Source of the DNA: Candidatus Saganbacteria bacterium
GTDB lineage: Bacteria; Margulisbacteria; WOR-1; XYC2-FULL-46-14; WPAF01
Length of the DNA stretch: 43,986 bases
Direction: 5' to 3'
Assembly: GCA_009772965.1 (NCBI GenBank)
Contig: WPAF01000017.1
Span: forward strand, 1 to 43,986
Part shown: positions 213-4,393 of the stretch, in pieces
Layout: each line of letters starts with the position of its first letter
Position numbering within the stretch: position 1 is the stretch's first letter
Notes under the pieces: model-generated
Databases searched by the model: none
Seen by the model: only the letters and a program-made list of their open reading frames with translations
Told to the model about the DNA's origin: nothing
Made by a program: the position numbers and the translations under genes

Positions 213-806
213 CTACAACCCTTTTCCAACGCGCAGACACAAGCATAAGCCCCAAAATGATTGAACGGGATTAATATTCCCAAACCCAATAACATCCAAT
301 CCAAAATCATATACTGCGGTGAGCAAGAGTAATTTAACTTCAATAGGAAGTCCAAATGTAGCAAAAGGAGTGCTTTCATAATCACTGGCCATGGTAGCAT
401 TATCCAAATTTGCAGGACCGATATATCTGCCTCTTTTTATGCCAGTAATAATACTTGCACCAAGCCCAAAAGAGATGATTTCTTTGTTTCCTTTAAAAAG
501 GAGACCGACATTTTCATACTCAAATATTTTATTAATTAAAAAACTGAATTCACTAACTTCATCAGGTTTAAAAAGAGCTGCTCCTCCTATTGAACGAAAC
601 GAATACGCATAATCACTATATCTTTTGGTATAATCAACCACCACCGAAAAACCTAGCGCGGCACCACCCGCACTCTCTATCCCAATTCCACCTAACCCTA
701 AATTAAGCCATGAAAAACTCTTTTTCGTTAATTCGTTACTTGCAAAAACAGACTCGAAAGAAAAAACCGCAAAAATTAATATAAATAAAAATATCCTAAG
801 CTGCAT
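213..806 (-). CDS. Exported protein of unknown function, 197 aa
   Basis: The chosen start at 806 is preceded by AAAGGAGAAAAT, a clear Shine-Dalgarno site. A frame extending upstream to 938 lacks such a site and would run through repeat sequence. Residues 1-22 form a signal peptide (MQLRIFLFILIFAVFSFESV then FA). The mature part is rich in Gly and alternating hydrophobic residues (LGLGGIGIESAGGAALGFSV, FATFGLPIEVKLLLLTAVYD), which suits a small outer-membrane beta-barrel or a periplasmic beta protein, but this is inference. A copy of the tRNA-end-like repeat (823..870) lies directly upstream. It belongs to a minus-strand series of small exported or membrane proteins between 213 and 3405. Function unknown. 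Confidence 0.7.
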   Translation of the reverse strand: MQLRIFLFILIFAVFSFESVFASNELTKKSFSWLNLGLGGIGIESAGGAALGFSVVVDYTKRYSDYAYSFRSIGGAALFKPDEVSEFSFLINKIFEYENVGLLFKGNKEIISFGLGASIITGIKRGRYIGPANLDNATMASDYESTPFATFGLPIEVKLLLLTAVYDFGLDVIGFGNINPVQSFWGLCLCLRVGKGL

Positions 807-822
807 ATTTTCTCCTTTAATA

Positions 823-870
823 AAACAATGCGCGGTAGAGGGATCCCCTCGACTCGTCGCTACGCTCGCG
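823..870 (-). repeat. Repeat copy (a), tRNA-3'-end/REP-like
   Basis: Read on the minus strand this is a CGAGCGTAGCGACGAGTCGAG block, then ATCCCTCTACCGCGCATTG, then the leader of the exported-protein gene starting at 806. Copies (b) 1504..1560 and (c) 3429..3476 have the same order and orientation: a GAGCG..AG.CGAGG block, then a TAGCGCGCATT-type block. The second block resembles the 3' end of the nearby tRNA-Val gene. Confidence 0.55.
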
Positions 871-876
871 AATATT

Positions 877-1320
877 TTACTCAATATTTTCGCTATTGGA
901 TGGTATTGCTTCAGCAGATGACAAAGAATTATTGACATTATTTAAAGATTTGTCATTTGGGACTAATAAATATTCATGTCCTAAATACCCACCAATAATC
1001 TTAATGCCTAAATACGGGAAATAATAACCGGGTAAAGTTGGGATAAAAAAACCAATATTCCCAGGATATGCAAGATAAAGCCAACTTGGAATCAATGCAC
1101 CCCAAAAAGTTCCCCAGTAATTACTTTTTGATCCGTTATCGCCCATAGAAGAATCAATTAGCCATGGATAAGCAATTGCATCTAGAATTAAACCAAAAAC
1201 CAATAAAACACCTACGCCGCTCATATCACCCCAGCTGCTTAGTCCCGAACCAAAGGCCAATCCAACACTTTGAATTGCAATAATAAATACAAGGAAAAAA
1301 ACAACTATTTTAACTTTCAT
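877..1320 (-). CDS. Small membrane/exported protein, 147 aa
   Basis: The N-terminus (MKVKIVVFFLVFIIAIQSVG then LAFG) is a signal peptide or signal anchor. A second hydrophobic stretch (VGVLLVFGLILDAIAYPWLI) and a Gly/Tyr/Pro-rich middle (FFIPTLPGYYFPYLGIKIIG) suggest one or two further membrane passages. The C-terminus is polar (Asn/Ser/Glu). The Shine-Dalgarno site is weak (GAAAGATTAAAATTGAG before ATG). Upstream, at about 1372..1393, is the inverted repeat ATTAG-CTTAT-CTAAT, which could be an operator. The gene is on the same strand as the 197-aa exported gene and 70 bases ahead of it, so co-transcription is likely. No family recognised. Confidence 0.6.
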   Translation of the reverse strand: MKVKIVVFFLVFIIAIQSVGLAFGSGLSSWGDMSGVGVLLVFGLILDAIAYPWLIDSSMGDNGSKSNYWGTFWGALIPSWLYLAYPGNIGFFIPTLPGYYFPYLGIKIIGGYLGHEYLLVPNDKSLNNVNNSLSSAEAIPSNSENIE

Positions 1321-1387
1321 CTCAATTTTAATCTTTCTTTTAAATCACTAAGCATTTACAAAATATAACATATTTCTATTAGATAAG

Positions 1388-1501
1388 CTAATCTTTCAAA
1401 ATAATCTTCTTATAAAACAGCACTCCTACAACCAAAACCAGCCAATGAACAAATATTTCTATAAAATAAGTGCCGACAGTAAATAATTCGACTAAAATCA
1501 T
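1388..1501 (-). CDS. Possible 37-aa single-pass membrane peptide
   Basis: Short ORF starting with ATG at 1501 and ending with TAG at 1388-1390. The product has a long hydrophobic centre (YFIEIFVHWLVLVVGVLFY) followed by a basic end (KKIILKD), the topology of a single-pass small membrane protein. Repeat copy (b) sits immediately upstream, just as copies (a) and (c) sit upstream of exported-protein genes. There is no convincing Shine-Dalgarno site. It could be a chance ORF in an AT-rich gap. Confidence 0.35.
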   Translation of the reverse strand: MILVELFTVGTYFIEIFVHWLVLVVGVLFYKKIILKD

Positions 1502-1503
1502 AG

Positions 1504-1560
1504 AAGAATGCGCGCTACCCTTCGACTTCCCTCGGCTCCGCTCGGGACAAGTCGCTCAGG
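1504..1560 (-). repeat. Repeat copy (b), tRNA-3'-end/REP-like
   Basis: On the minus strand it reads GTCCCGAGCGGAGCCGAGGG, AAGTCGAAGGG, then TAGCGCGCATTC. It is the most GC-rich copy and has extra CGAG/CTCGG units on its left side (to about 1573), so several short hairpins are possible. See copies (a) and (c). Confidence 0.5.
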
Positions 1561-1727
1561 GCTCGGGGCAAGAGAATCAATAACTCTTTACTAACAAGCA
1601 AGCAAGGGATCAGATAGATAATAAGCTGACATGGCTATGAACTTCGAAAATTAAGCGGTGGCAAAAGTTGCATCCATTTACGGGATTATTACCTTATCCC
1701 TTTTGAGGGGGCAATAAAGCATAAAAA

Positions 1728-1949
1728 CTAATTCTCTTGCCAAGAGATTATCCATAATGGACGTTTAACGTCAATTAAACGCACGAGTTTAAATAACTGC
1801 CGCGAATTACTCCACAACTTGGTTATTAAATTGCTCCTTTTGTCTCTTATCCGCTGGAAAGGGATCCCTCTATTAGTCCACTATGAGTTGACGCTCATAA
1901 GCGAGGATGTTTGGGACATAGTCACTATTTGGCTAATTAGCCATTCCAT
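1728..1949 (-). pseudogene. Small ORF interrupted by an amber codon
   Basis: ATG at 1949 follows GGAGGGGGTTACT, a strong ribosome site. Twenty-two codons (MEWLISQIVTMSQTSSLMSV then NS) end in TAG at 1881-1883. The same frame then stays open for 50 more codons to a TAG at 1728-1730, giving a basic, Trp-rich peptide (ends VKRPLWIISWQEN). This could be a broken 73-codon gene, a leader peptide, or chance. The start codon lies inside an inverted repeat that could hide it. No family recognised. Confidence 0.35.
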
Positions 1950-1993
1950 AGTAACCCCCTCCTTTGCTGCGCCATAGCTGGCACAGTGTAATA

Positions 1994-1999
1994 ATTATA
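1994..1999 (-). promoter_or_regulatory. -10 box of the 1949 ORF/structured region
   Basis: TATAAT on the minus strand in the context TTATGATATAATTATTACAC, about 45 bases before the ATG at 1949. No convincing -35 hexamer is seen at 16-18 bases spacing, so support is moderate. Confidence 0.4.
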
Positions 2000-2021
2000 T
2001 CATAATTCAAAACAGTCCTGC

Positions 2022-2240
2022 TTATTTGAGACTATTTATTTTATCAATAGGCACTTTTAACGCTTTTGCAATTAAATGAACTGTCGAAAGTTTGGGTTCT
2101 TTTCGGGACTTATATAAAAGACCCTGAAGGATCATTAATGGGAGCTTAGCTCTTCGAGCAAGTCCGGAATAAGTGATTTGCTTAATCTGACATTGCTCTT
2201 TGAGGTTTTTCGCTATAGTTTCGTGATAATTAATTTTTAT
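2022..2240 (-). pseudogene. XRE-family DNA-binding protein lacking a normal start
   Basis: This frame encodes about 72 residues matching a Cro/CI (XRE) helix-turn-helix: HETIAKNLKEQCQIKQITYS then GLARRAKLPLMILQGLLYKS, ending LIAKALKVPIDKINSLK. Helix 2, the recognition helix and the usual LxxIAKALxV end are all present. Upstream of HETIAKNL no ATG, GTG or TTG occurs before an in-frame stop. The codon where such proteins usually begin (M-K-I-N-Y) is ATA at 2238-2240. The gene therefore looks inactivated by an ATG-to-ATA change, or uses a rare start. It lies among the exported-protein genes and may once have controlled them. Confidence 0.6.
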
Positions 2241-2308
2241 TAGGCTTTAAATTCGCTAAGAAATATTTTTGGATAATATATTTAAAAAGGGACGCTACAG
2301 AATAAATA

Positions 2309-2779
2309 TTATTTGTGAGCCGCATAACCAAGTGATACGCCAACTACAAACAACAAAAGTCCTACTAAATAGGCATTTTCAATATCCTTATTATACTTTT
2401 TTATAGAAATCATTTCTTGCTTGGCCTGCATTTCATTCAATAGATAAATATTGCTAGTAGTTGAGCTTTGATTGTTTTCATTGCCCAATGCTCCAGCGCC
2501 AATTGTCTTGGAAGCAGGAATTACCACAGAAGGGTTACTTGGATCCTGATAATATTCACTTGTTGGGTCATGAATATATTTATTTGTTCCTTCCTCTCCT
2601 GTATAGGGGTTAATATTCCCTTTGTAGTTATAATTATCTATAACAGTATTATTCGGCGCCGATCTCTCGTAAGGTTGAACATAGGTGCCATTTGAACGAG
2701 TGTATCCACCGACATGCACAGCAAATGATGAAGTCACAGTGAATAGAAATAGGATACATACAACTATTATTTTTTTCAT
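2309..2779 (-). CDS. Exported protein with GYTRSNGTYV motif, 156 aa
   Basis: Residues 1-20 are a signal peptide (MKKIIVVCILFLFTVTSSFA). The next part carries a motif seen in many small exported bacterial and phage proteins: VGGYTRSNGTYVQPYERSAP, then DNYNYKGNINPYTGEEGT. The middle is Asn/Ser/Pro-rich. The C-terminus has a single membrane helix (AYLVGLLLFVVGVSLGYAAH) ending in K, so the protein may be anchored with its motif outside the cytoplasm. The next gene upstream (3027) carries the same motif in a shorter form, which points to tandem duplication. The function of the motif is not known to me. Confidence 0.7.
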   Translation of the reverse strand: MKKIIVVCILFLFTVTSSFAVHVGGYTRSNGTYVQPYERSAPNNTVIDNYNYKGNINPYTGEEGTNKYIHDPTSEYYQDPSNPSVVIPASKTIGAGALGNENNQSSTTSNIYLLNEMQAKQEMISIKKYNKDIENAYLVGLLLFVVGVSLGYAAHK

Positions 2780-2811
2780 CTCATCATCTTCTTCAAGTGA
2801 GTGGTTCGCAT

Positions 2812-3027
2812 TTAATAAATTCTTTTTGTCCCTTTTTTTCCTGTCGATGGATTGATATTGCCTTTAGTTGACCAATTATCAATTTTTGTTTTATTGGGAG
2901 AAGTCTTATAATGTGGGGACACATAATTCCCGCTTTTTTTAAAACTTCCCCTTACTATTACGCTTTTTGCAAACGAAACAGAAACCAATAAAAAGCAAGC
3001 CAAGACTATTAATATAAACTTTTTCAT
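2812..3027 (-). CDS. Small exported protein, paralogue of the 2309 gene, 71 aa
   Basis: The start at 3027 is chosen over a frame extension to 3045 because AGAGGAAATAAC sits directly before it. It has a signal peptide (MKKFILIVLACFLLVSVSFA) followed by VRGSFKKSGNYVSPHYKTSP and DNWSTKGNINPSTGKKGT. These align with the motif of the 156-aa neighbour (GYTRSNGTYVQPY, DNYNYKGNINPYTGEEGT). It ends soon after the motif, without a membrane anchor, so the product is probably free in the periplasm. The two genes are 32 bases apart on the same strand. Confidence 0.7.
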   Translation of the reverse strand: MKKFILIVLACFLLVSVSFAKSVIVRGSFKKSGNYVSPHYKTSPNKTKIDNWSTKGNINPSTGKKGTKRIY

Positions 3028-3132
3028 GTTATTTCCTCTTTTCATTTAATCATAATAAGTTATAAATGTTCTTAGACAAGTATTCTCCGCTATGCTCTGC
3101 TACCACATTTGGTTTCTCCCTACCCCTTATTG

Positions 3133-3405
3133 TTATTGGCAAGGTGTCCAGTAATGTCTTATAACTGAGTGATCGCCAGTATCATCATAGTGAGCAGAAT
3201 ATCTCCAAACTTTCCCCGTAACTGTATCAATTTTAAAAAGGTCTTTTGTGTCTTCCTTTCCGCCCACATTCATGCCAGTTCCGTCTTTACCCGAGGTAAG
3301 AACAGAATAATATCCCTGACATAATTGGTATCTTCCTTCTCCAGCCGCTAACCCAACAGAAACGAGAGCCATTAAAAAGATTAAGCAAACTAGCGCTTTT
3401 TTCAT
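3133..3405 (-). CDS. Small exported protein, 90 aa
   Basis: Signal peptide MKKALVCLIFLMALVSVGLA, then a short mature domain beginning GEGRYQLCQGYYSV and continuing with TKDLFKIDTVTGKVWRYSAH. The pattern of a beta-hairpin with DxxTGxxW recurs in many small exported bacterial proteins with no assigned role. Two cysteines (in QLCQG and near the C-terminus, PCQ) could form a disulfide. AAGGGGGAAGAA before the ATG is a good Shine-Dalgarno site. Repeat copy (c) lies just upstream. First gene in the minus-strand series of small exported proteins. Confidence 0.65.
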   Translation of the reverse strand: MKKALVCLIFLMALVSVGLAAGEGRYQLCQGYYSVLTSGKDGTGMNVGGKEDTKDLFKIDTVTGKVWRYSAHYDDTGDHSVIRHYWTPCQ

Positions 3406-3428
3406 TTCTTCCCCCTTAATGACACTAA

Positions 3429-3476
3429 AAAAACAATGCGCGCTACTGGGATTTCCTCGACTGCGCTCGGAACAAG
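3429..3476 (-). repeat. Repeat copy (c), tRNA-3'-end/REP-like
   Basis: On the minus strand it reads TTCCGAGCGCAGTCGAGG, AA, then ATCCCAGTAGCGCGCATTG. The 16 bases at 3437..3452 are identical to 4027..4042, the T-arm/acceptor 3' end of the tRNA-Val gene. It lies directly upstream of the 90-aa exported-protein gene. Confidence 0.55.
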
Positions 3477-3508
3477 CCCTTGCCTATTAATTATAACAGT
3501 TTAATCAA

Positions 3509-3853
3509 TTATTTCTGTGAATTTATTAAACCGGAGAACATTTTAGACAATTCTTCAACCAGTGCATTAAATTTCTCAATAGTTTCATTTCCAGGATTTA
3601 AATGGAGTAAAATAAGGTCAAAACAGGTTGCTGTTTCGTTCAAAGATGCTCTCGCGGTAATATAAAAATGCTTTTTATCATTTTTTGTAAATCGGCCATA
3701 ACCTTCGGAGAAATTAAGAATAATAGAAATAGTTGACCTTGAAATTTGATCCTTCAACGGTTTCGGAATATTCTCTTTCAGGCAACTATTAACCAGCGAG
3801 TATAACTCTTTTGCTTTTTTATATATCTCTTTATCTTTAAAATCGGTAAACAT
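3509..3853 (-). CDS. Four-helix-bundle (S23-type) protein, 114 aa
   Basis: The sequence fits the four-helix-bundle family first seen encoded within 23S rRNA intervening sequences and now found as free-standing genes in many candidate-phylum genomes. Visible are the N-terminal helix (DKEIYKKAKELYSLVNSCL), P-x-x-L-x-x-Q-I-x-R-S-T-I-S-I, the family signature NFSEGYGR, a central KKHFYITARASLNE, and a final long helix. The length is typical. Members form pentameric bundles with a proposed nucleic-acid or partner-binding role, and their function is unproven. It lies between two 16-base copies of the tRNA-Val 3' end (3437..3452, 4027..4042) and next to a TAAG-type repeat, so it may be part of a small mobile unit. 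Confidence 0.8.
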   Translation of the reverse strand: MFTDFKDKEIYKKAKELYSLVNSCLKENIPKPLKDQISRSTISIILNFSEGYGRFTKNDKKHFYITARASLNETATCFDLILLHLNPGNETIEKFNALVEELSKMFSGLINSQK

Positions 3854-4000
3854 GGTTTCTTCTTACTTCTTATTACTTACTACTTATTTCTTACTTCTTT
3901 TTTCTTACTACTTATTCCCTATTTCTTATTTCTTGCTGCTTACTCCTTCTTAACTTTGCGCTTAAACGAAAATTTAAGTAATAAGAAATAAGTAACAAGG
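3854..4000. repeat. Low-complexity TAAG/TACTT repeat with inverted arm
   Basis: From 3854 to about 3950 the plus strand is a degenerate run of CTTATTACTT/CTTACTACTTATTTC units. The complementary form (TTTAAGTAATAAGAAATAAG, then TAACAAGG) follows at 3972-4000. The two arms could pair into a long imperfect hairpin. It fills the gap upstream of the four-helix-bundle gene. Confidence 0.6.
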
Positions 4001-4025
4001 CATAATTTCGCTTCGCAAAATTATG
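4001..4025 (-). terminator. Hairpin just downstream of tRNA-Val
   Basis: CATAATTT (4001-4008) and AAATTATG (4018-4025) are perfectly complementary around a short GC-containing loop, directly after (and touching) the CCA end of tRNA-Val. There is no U-tract, so it may be a processing or weak termination hairpin rather than a classical terminator. Confidence 0.35.
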
Positions 4026-4100
4026 GTGCGCGCTACTGGGATCGAACCAGTGACCCCTTGCCTGTCAAGCAAGTACTCTAACCAGCTGAGCTAAGCGCGC
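4024..4100 (-). tRNA. tRNA-Val (GAC anticodon)
   Basis: Full cloverleaf on the minus strand: acceptor GCGCGCT/AGCGCGC, D-arm TAGCTCAGCTGGTTAGAG, anticodon stem CTTGC/GCAAG with loop TTGACAG (anticodon GAC, reading GUC Val), T-arm ACTGG TTCGATC CCAGT, discriminator A. CCA is encoded (4024-4026), unlike the other tRNAs here. Its 3' end is repeated at 3437..3452. Confidence 0.9.
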
Positions 4101-4111
4101 AACATATATTT

Positions 4112-4183
4112 AGGCGCGGGGCGGATTTGAACCGCCGAATGACTGTTTTGCAGACAGTTCCCTTACCACTTGGGTACCGCGCC
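4112..4183 (-). tRNA. tRNA-Cys (GCA anticodon)
   Basis: Acceptor GGCGCGG/CCGCGCC, anticodon stem ACTGT/ACAGT with loop CTGCAAA (anticodon GCA), T-arm GGCGG TTCAAAT CCGCC, and discriminator U, the identity base for cysteine tRNAs. CCA is not encoded. A broken copy follows at 4226..4308. Confidence 0.9.
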
Positions 4184-4237
4184 ATATGTTTATAATCAAC
4201 CATTATACTCAAAACCTAACCAAGTGGGGCGGATTTG

Positions 4238-4252
4238 CCCGCCTTCGGCGGG
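4238..4252. repeat. Perfect palindrome CCCGCCTTCGGCGGG
   Basis: A 15-base hairpin unit (stem CCCGCC/GGCGGG, loop TTC) within the broken tRNA-Cys. It resembles short mobile palindromes, but its copy number elsewhere in the genome cannot be judged from this window. Confidence 0.55.
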
Positions 4253-4277
4253 TTGCAGACAGTTCCCTTACCACTTG

Positions 4278-4297
4278 CCTGCCCGCCGGCAGGCAGG
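4278..4297. repeat. CCTGCC/GGCAGG palindromic insert
   Basis: A 20-base GC-rich hairpin unit that interrupts the D-arm of the broken tRNA-Cys. A shorter relative, CCTGCCGGCAGG, lies inside a coding sequence at 22114..22125. Confidence 0.6.
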
Positions 4298-4320
4298 GGT
4301 ACCGCGCCGCGAAATAAGAG

Positions 4321-4393
4321 AGCGGGAGACGGGGCTCGAACCCGCGACCTTCTGCTTGGGAAGCAGAAGCTCTACCAACTGAGCTACTCCCGC
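4321..4393 (-). tRNA. tRNA-Gly (CCC anticodon)
   Basis: Acceptor GCGGGAG/CTCCCGC, D-arm TAGCTCAGTTGGTAGAG, anticodon stem TCTGC/GCAGA with loop TTCCCAA (anticodon CCC, reading GGG), T-arm GCGGG TTCGAGC CCCGT, discriminator U. CCA is not encoded. It lies 12 bases after the stop of the sigma-factor gene on the same strand, so it may be co-transcribed with it. Confidence 0.9.

What the first reader, a model, noticed from the sequence alone, without database searches (positions are those of the whole stretch)
823..4042. Repeat resembling the tRNA-Val 3' end upstream of exported-protein genes
Three repeats (823, 1504, 3429) have the same strand and the same order of blocks, and each lies just upstream of a small exported or membrane gene (starts 806, 1501, 3405). 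The second block of copy (c) is identical over 16 bases to the T-arm/acceptor 3' end of tRNA-Val at 4027-4042. The repeats may be REP-type elements derived from a tRNA end, or shared control elements for the gene family.
Basis: partly seen in the sequence, partly recalled or inferred. Interest (0 to 1): 0.5.

Follow-up and report, generated by a model that had tools for sequence, protein, structure and literature searches.

The report
Broken tRNA copies with hairpin inserts
The three repeats are not gene switches but leftover ends of broken valine-tRNA gene copies with small DNA hairpins lodged in them, traces of a process that repeatedly breaks and replaces tRNA genes across this little-known bacterial phylum.

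Summary
Copies (a) 826, (b) 1506 and (c) 3434 share strand and block order, and (c) matches tRNA-Val over 16 bases. They are not a dispersed REP family or gene control elements. Copy (c) reads tRNA-Val 3' end (3437-3452), a 24-bp palindromic insert, then tRNA-Val anticodon-arm sequence (3477-3485). A genome of another family of the class (G062, Margulisiibacteriota) has the same object, more complete, beside the same tRNA-Gly-Cys-Val operon. A second tRNA-Cys copy at 4226-4308 is interrupted twice. So the repeats are 3' stubs of redundant tRNA-Val copies, cut in the T loop and stuffed with palindromes; (b) is the weakest. Across 31 class genomes a double-hairpin element sits in tRNA sequence in 22 of 47 scorable cases (null 2 of 1500), mostly exactly at T-loop C56|R57. 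Sometimes the intact tRNA lies nested inside the broken one. Small GIY-YIG nuclease genes lie within 200 bp of a tRNA in 50 of 75 loci (control 0 of 26), always codirectional; 30 of 32 upstream ones have 5' fragments of the same tRNA beyond them. I infer, not show, that nuclease-driven breakage and replacement of tRNA genes made these relics. No GIY-YIG gene lies at the window's own locus.

The parts
4024..4100 (-). intact tRNA-Val(GAC), the gene whose copies the repeats are
   Evidence: ARAGORN; Rfam
3437..3452 (-). copy (c): tRNA-Val nt 59-74 (T-arm/acceptor 3' side), identical over 16 nt
3453..3476 (.). copy (c): 24-bp palindromic insert, replacing 12 nt of the tRNA
   Evidence: sequence; same palindrome family in G000 and G002
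3477..3485 (-). copy (c): second tRNA-Val piece (CCCTTGCCT = 4055-4063) beyond the insert
829..844 (-). copy (a): tRNA-Val-like 3' end, 13 of 16 with the local tRNA-Val, 14 of 16 with the G057 tRNA-Val
845..870 (.). copy (a): palindrome-family insert at the T-loop position
   Evidence: G062 has GGGATCCCCTCGACT at the same place
1506..1518 (-). copy (b): tRNA-Val-like 3' tip (10 nt identical); weakest of the three
1519..1573 (.). copy (b): palindrome nested in a palindrome
   Evidence: sequence
4226..4308 (-). second, broken tRNA-Cys copy: nt 55-66, 12-36 and 1-12 kept; inserts 4238-4252 and 4278-4296
4112..4183 (-). intact tRNA-Cys(GCA)
4320..4393 (-). intact tRNA-Gly(CCC)
3509..3853 (-). 23S_rRNA_IVP four-helix-bundle gene between copy (c) and tRNA-Val
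   Evidence: Pfam PF05635 E 1.1e-17
213..806 (-). exported-protein gene next to copy (a); 50% identical to a gene of the same hotspot in G071

Best explanation
Shown: the repeats are 3' stubs of redundant tRNA-Val gene copies downstream of the intact tRNA-Val, (c) securely, (a) probably, (b) possibly; the tRNA sequence of (a) and (c) stops at or within a base of the T-loop junction C56|R57, and a short palindrome is lodged there. Shown for the class: the same tRNA operon and many other tRNA genes carry broken second copies, most often cut at C56|R57, holding palindromic inserts. Inferred: tRNA genes here are attacked in the conserved T loop (GTTC|RA), probably by tRNA-linked GIY-YIG nucleases of the SegB kind. 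Repair leaves an intact tRNA (in several loci lying inside the old one) and a displaced copy that is free to decay and to collect palindromes, IVP genes and other small cargo. In the window the displaced pieces were then spread over 3 kb by cargo insertion and local duplication. The position upstream of exported genes is incidental.
For: 16-nt identity plus a second tRNA piece beyond the insert in (c). G062 copy beside the same operon: three inserts in otherwise continuous tRNA-Val sequence. Of the tRNA loci of G000 held (30 loci, overlapping), only the Val/Cys cluster of the window has partial copies of 12 nt or more. Class: 22 of 47 double-hairpin elements have both flanks matching one tRNA at one cut, null 2 of 1500; 18 of the 27 scoring >=20 are exactly at C56|R57. 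Congeners G066 and G067 differ by presence of the stub. GIY-YIG: 50 of 75 loci within 200 bp of a tRNA, control 0 of 26, 50 of 50 codirectional, same-tRNA fragment beyond the gene in 33 of 50. Phage SegB (GIY-YIG) cuts in tRNA genes with motif RAWTSGAAC, the reverse complement of the T-loop sequence (PMC13096335, sections 9 and 10 read).
Against: No GIY-YIG gene lies at the window's locus; the local cargo is an IVP gene. Double-hairpin counts per genome do not correlate with GIY-YIG (rho 0.02) or IVP (rho -0.04) counts, so nothing ties the hairpins' movement to the nuclease. The window's palindrome is a single-hairpin family, not the double-hairpin one. (a) has 3 mismatches of 16, (b) is short. 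In G071 a 40-nt stub is better explained by segmental duplication with its IVP neighbour. Fragment-like matches to reversed tRNA sequence also occur by chance in 9 of 50 loci, and re-paired flanks score >=22 in 81 of 940 because tRNAs resemble each other.
Confidence: 0.65

Rival explanations
1. Attachment-site remnants of integrative elements (tyrosine recombinase) that entered the tRNA-Val 3' end one after another.
For: 3' tRNA ends as same-strand direct repeats with cargo between them; G071 holds a 40-nt copy from the anticodon to the 3' end; integration is a known source of tRNA fragments (PMC9897764, passages seen).
Against: No integrase among the ORFs examined beside the repeats; in the class, 5' fragments are displaced upstream, cuts also fall in D and anticodon arms, and intact tRNAs lie nested inside broken ones. 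The contig ends at position 1, so a distant integrase is not excluded.
Confidence: 0.17
2. REP-like elements moved by a Y1 (RAYT) transposase that happen to carry or to target a tRNA end.
For: G000 has 6 Y1_Tnp matches; one (L004) has a similar palindrome just beyond the ORF; the palindrome pattern has 7 hits in G000 and 24 in G002.
Against: G002 has 24 hits of the palindrome pattern and no Y1 match; G057, G062 and G064 have double-hairpin junctions and no Y1 match; rho 0.09. The tRNA part is not part of the palindrome.
Confidence: 0.1
3. Shared regulatory elements of an exported-protein gene family.
For: Each copy lies 5' of a small exported or membrane ORF.
Against: The three ORFs are not one family; two related exported genes (2309-2779, 2812-3045) have no copy; stubs elsewhere have no such genes or lie downstream of them.
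Confidence: 0.03

Closest known systems
Phage SegB-type free-standing GIY-YIG homing endonucleases linked to tRNA genes (PMC13096335; sections 9 and 10 read)
   Same: GIY-YIG nuclease next to tRNA genes of many isotypes; SegB cuts within tRNA genes at a motif that is the T-loop sequence; segB-tRNA units become duplicated.
   Different: Here the genes are chromosomal in a bacterial class, about 80-110 aa, codirectional and often running into the tRNA, with displaced fragments of the same tRNA beside them; no cutting was tested.
REP / BIME elements and RAYTs (PMC3733652; abstract seen)
   Same: Short palindromes between genes, some in tandem.
   Different: Few copies, no consistent GTAG or CGTC tag, lodged in tRNA loops, no consistent transposase link.
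Mitochondrial double-hairpin elements (first described in Allomyces: recalled; other mitochondrial papers seen in listing)
   Same: Two adjacent hairpins, mobile-looking, short.
   Different: Bacterial chromosome; strong placement in tRNA genes; no known homology.
attR-type tRNA fragments of integrative elements (PMC9897764; passages seen)
   Same: Partial tRNA copies next to an intact tRNA.
   Different: Inserts in T, D and anticodon arms, nested intact tRNAs, no integrase seen.

Membership tests
REP elements (GTAG/CGTC type) | conserved GTAG or CGTC tag at one end | tested here: not met
   (c) shows GTAG only as part of tRNA-Val; (a) has CTACC there
REP elements (GTAG/CGTC type) | high copy number | tested here: not met
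   3 composite copies; 7 hits of the palindrome pattern in G000
REP elements (GTAG/CGTC type) | RAYT gene flanked by the same repeats | tested here: inconclusive
   six Y1_Tnp loci read; a similar palindrome beside one (L004)
tRNA attachment-site remnant | integrase gene in the adjoining element | tested here: inconclusive
   none among ORFs examined; contig ends at base 1
tRNA attachment-site remnant | direct repeat of the tRNA 3' end | tested here: met
tRNA-linked GIY-YIG homing unit (SegB-like) | GIY-YIG gene beside the tRNA | tested here: not met
   none at the window's locus; met at tRNA-Met (L312) and tRNA-Asn (L275) of the same genome
tRNA-linked GIY-YIG homing unit (SegB-like) | break in the T-loop motif | tested here: met
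   tRNA part of (a) and (c) ends at or within a base of C56|R57
tRNA-linked GIY-YIG homing unit (SegB-like) | nuclease cuts tRNA genes | not testable with these tools
   needs biochemistry
cis-regulatory element | conserved position upstream of related genes | tested here: not met

The most novel reading that the evidence does not exclude
Margulisiibacteriota chromosomes host a tRNA-gene-homing system: small GIY-YIG nucleases cut the nearly universal T-loop sequence GTTC|RA, so any tRNA gene (and tmRNA) is a target, and the incoming cassette ends in a complete or regenerating tRNA of the same isotype, so that breaking an essential gene costs nothing. The displaced tRNA becomes a landing pad for double-hairpin elements. 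The repeats in this window are its fossils.
Probability: 0.4. Interest if true: 0.85.

Novelty: new variant of a known kind. Interest (0 to 1): 0.6.

Why it matters
tRNA genes are classic landing sites for mobile DNA, but mainly through integrases acting on one gene each. A nuclease that reads the T loop shared by all tRNAs, paired with a replacement tRNA, would be a general way to invade essential genes without harm. It would explain displaced and nested tRNA fragments, and it makes tRNA-linked GIY-YIG genes, reported for phages in the paper I read, testable in bacterial chromosomes. It also warns that such stubs can be mistaken for regulatory repeats.

Tried and rejected
Dispersed repeat family: rejected, three composite copies only. 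Known structured RNA at the repeats: Rfam gave nothing there besides tRNAs (one sub-threshold plant miRNA match at 3912-4005). Single-strand folds of the copies: no better than shuffles except (a) on +, z -2.9. Y1 transposase as mover: no correlation. Hairpin loops in general as target: the 25 elements below the tRNA threshold were not in palindromes more than chance (p 0.27), though two are. Correlation of double-hairpin counts with GIY-YIG or IVP counts: none. The search for related loci with the sigma factor in genome contigs found nothing. Literature: searches listed no bacterial tRNA-nested palindrome or chromosomal GIY-YIG/tRNA cassette; most subscription papers are not in that library. 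Not used: structure prediction, viral contigs, RNA models.

Rows left out of counts: 69 distinct places of TCGGGATCCCGA, 48 with both ends, 47 scored. GIY-YIG: 75 of 110 matches examined; left out were 31 UvrC-length frames, two second hits in loci already held and two fragments (my count). IVP: 30 loci held, of the longer list of matches. The 9 tRNA-flanked elements not at C56|R57 are in D, anticodon or neighbouring positions. The script stopped with an error after printing the results cited; one search failed and was rerun.
Full report
WHAT IS THERE. The window is contig C37 of G000, 1.63 Mb in 63 contigs. Its relatives named through the collections are Candidatus Margulisiibacteriota: contigs of G062 and G057 have the same lengths as records of Prado142 and of WOR-1 RIFCSPLOWO2_02_FULL_46_20. 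Block 1, AATGCGCGSTA, occurs exactly five times in the genome, three times here; the other two have unrelated surroundings.

COPY (c) IS A BROKEN tRNA-Val. On the tRNA strand, 3437-3452 is identical to tRNA-Val nt 59-74; then follows a 24-bp palindromic insert (3453-3476); then 3477-3485 is again tRNA-Val sequence (anticodon arm, 4055-4063), with 12 nt of the tRNA lost at the insert. Copy (a) has a tRNA-Val-like 3' end (13 of 16 with the local gene, 14 of 16 with the tRNA-Val of G057) and a palindrome at the same position. Copy (b) keeps only about 10 nt of the tRNA tip, next to a palindrome that holds a second palindrome. A tRNA-Cys copy at 4226-4308 is interrupted by two other palindromes.

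THE COMPARISON THAT DECIDES. A gapped search of 74 genomes of the phylum found the composite in G062, of another family of the class. There it lies beside the same tRNA-Gly-Cys-Val operon and the same sigma factor gene. The G062 copy runs TGCGCGCTACTGGGAT, insert, CGAACCAGTGACCCC, insert, CCTTGCC, insert, TGTCAAG: tRNA-Val sequence with three inserts. In the window (c) looks like the same object after deletion between two inserts (inference). tRNA operon stretches were fetched from 18 class genomes; ARAGORN finds the tRNA-Val/Cys pair in 15 of the 18 (L124, L127 and L130 have no tRNA in the stretch). Broken tRNA copies beside intact ones are seen in L113, L114, L116, L117, L122, L126 and L128. 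Of the G000 tRNA loci held, only the window's cluster has partial copies.

THE WIDER PATTERN. A double-hairpin element, TCCCGA..TCGGGA TCCCGA..TCGGGA, marks many of these breaks. Its junction occurs at 69 places in 21 of 31 class genomes; some are plainly coding coincidences. Of 47 scorable elements, 22 have both flanks fitting one tRNA at one cut (>=22 of 30; random cuts 2 of 1500), and 27 score >=20 (random 30 of 1500). Of those 27, 18 are exactly at C56|R57 and the rest in the D arm, anticodon arm or between. One further case is the 3' end of a tmRNA copy (L225, by eye; it is among the 27 through its likeness to a tRNA T arm). Congeners G066 and G067 differ by the presence of one such stub. 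In L122, L202, L221, L243 and L113 the pieces of the broken tRNA lie on both sides of an intact tRNA of the same isotype, with reciprocal breakpoints in L122 (4-32 / 33-58), L202 (4-26 / 27-58) and L221 (5-57, remainder read by eye). Taking the insert out of L221 restores a tRNA-Lys for ARAGORN, and in L234 a tRNA-Ala.

GIY-YIG GENES. Small GIY-YIG ORFs turned up inside or beside broken tRNAs (L243, L246, L126). A class-wide test followed: 50 of 75 small GIY-YIG loci lie within 200 bp of a tRNA against 0 of 26 Y1_Tnp loci (Fisher p 2.6e-10), with 13 isotypes and all 50 codirectional. Thirty-two lie 5' of the tRNA, and in 30 of these a 5' fragment of the same tRNA lies beyond the gene; of the 18 on the 3' side only 3 have a fragment beyond (my split of its 33 of 50; a reversed-tRNA control hits 9 of 50 loci anywhere). 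In 14 of 32 the ORF runs into the tRNA. The Y, Y-x-G, R, H and E positions of the family are nearly invariant. G000 has two such genes, beside tRNA-Met (L312) and tRNA-Asn (L275), and palindromes like the window's lie between tRNA-Asn and its GIY-YIG gene (by eye). IVP genes are also near tRNAs more than expected (6 of 30 within 200 bp; p 4e-5 against a 2.2% background estimated from G000).

HOW IT MAY WORK. The phage enzyme SegB, also GIY-YIG, cuts within tRNA genes with the motif RAWTSGAAC (PMC13096335), the reverse complement of the T-loop sequence GTTCSAWTY. The breaks here are at GTTC|RA. I infer that T-loop cutting by such nucleases, followed by repair that leaves a complete tRNA, produces a displaced copy which decays. 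Not shown: cutting, current mobility, and what moves the hairpins; their counts do not follow GIY-YIG, IVP or Y1 counts. At the window's own locus no GIY-YIG gene remains, so the link to that system rests on the break position, the inserts and the same operon in G062 and G057.

AGAINST A REGULATORY ROLE. In G071 the homologue of gene 213-806 (50% identity) has a stub on its downstream side; G062 and G067 have stubs without such genes; the related exported genes 2309-2779 and 2812-3045 have none. The stubs' place before gene starts is best read as cargo and stubs sharing one insertion hotspot.

Noticed in passing
L268-L344 (class loci), e.g. L333, L335, L312: Small GIY-YIG nuclease genes sit beside tRNA genes in 50 of 75 loci, always codirectional, 32 of them upstream with a 5' fragment of the same tRNA beyond the gene in 30.
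   Followed up: yes
window 4226-4308: Second tRNA-Cys copy interrupted by two different palindromes.
   Followed up: yes
window 3853-4005: Degenerate simple repeats (ttacttattactt... and inverted) between the IVP gene and tRNA-Val; comparable simple repeats flank IVP genes in L078/L113, L117 and L118.
   Followed up: partly
L225 around 974-1057: Double-hairpin element in the T loop of a copy of the tmRNA 3' end beside what looks like the intact tmRNA end.
   Followed up: partly
L004 about 538: The palindrome CCTGCCTGCCGGCAGGCAGG lies in frame inside a MiaB-like ORF (name from my reading) and reads as ALPACRQAGA.
   Followed up: no
L116 6264-7300: A broken tRNA-Val stub is followed by small ORFs, one resembling a RelE-type toxin of a toxin-antitoxin pair (my reading, not searched).
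   Followed up: no
window 1560-2010: About 450 bp with no ORF above 52 codons and no Rfam match between copy (b) and the exported genes.
   Followed up: no
window 2309-3045: Two adjacent exported proteins are paralogues (about 41-45% identical).
   Followed up: no
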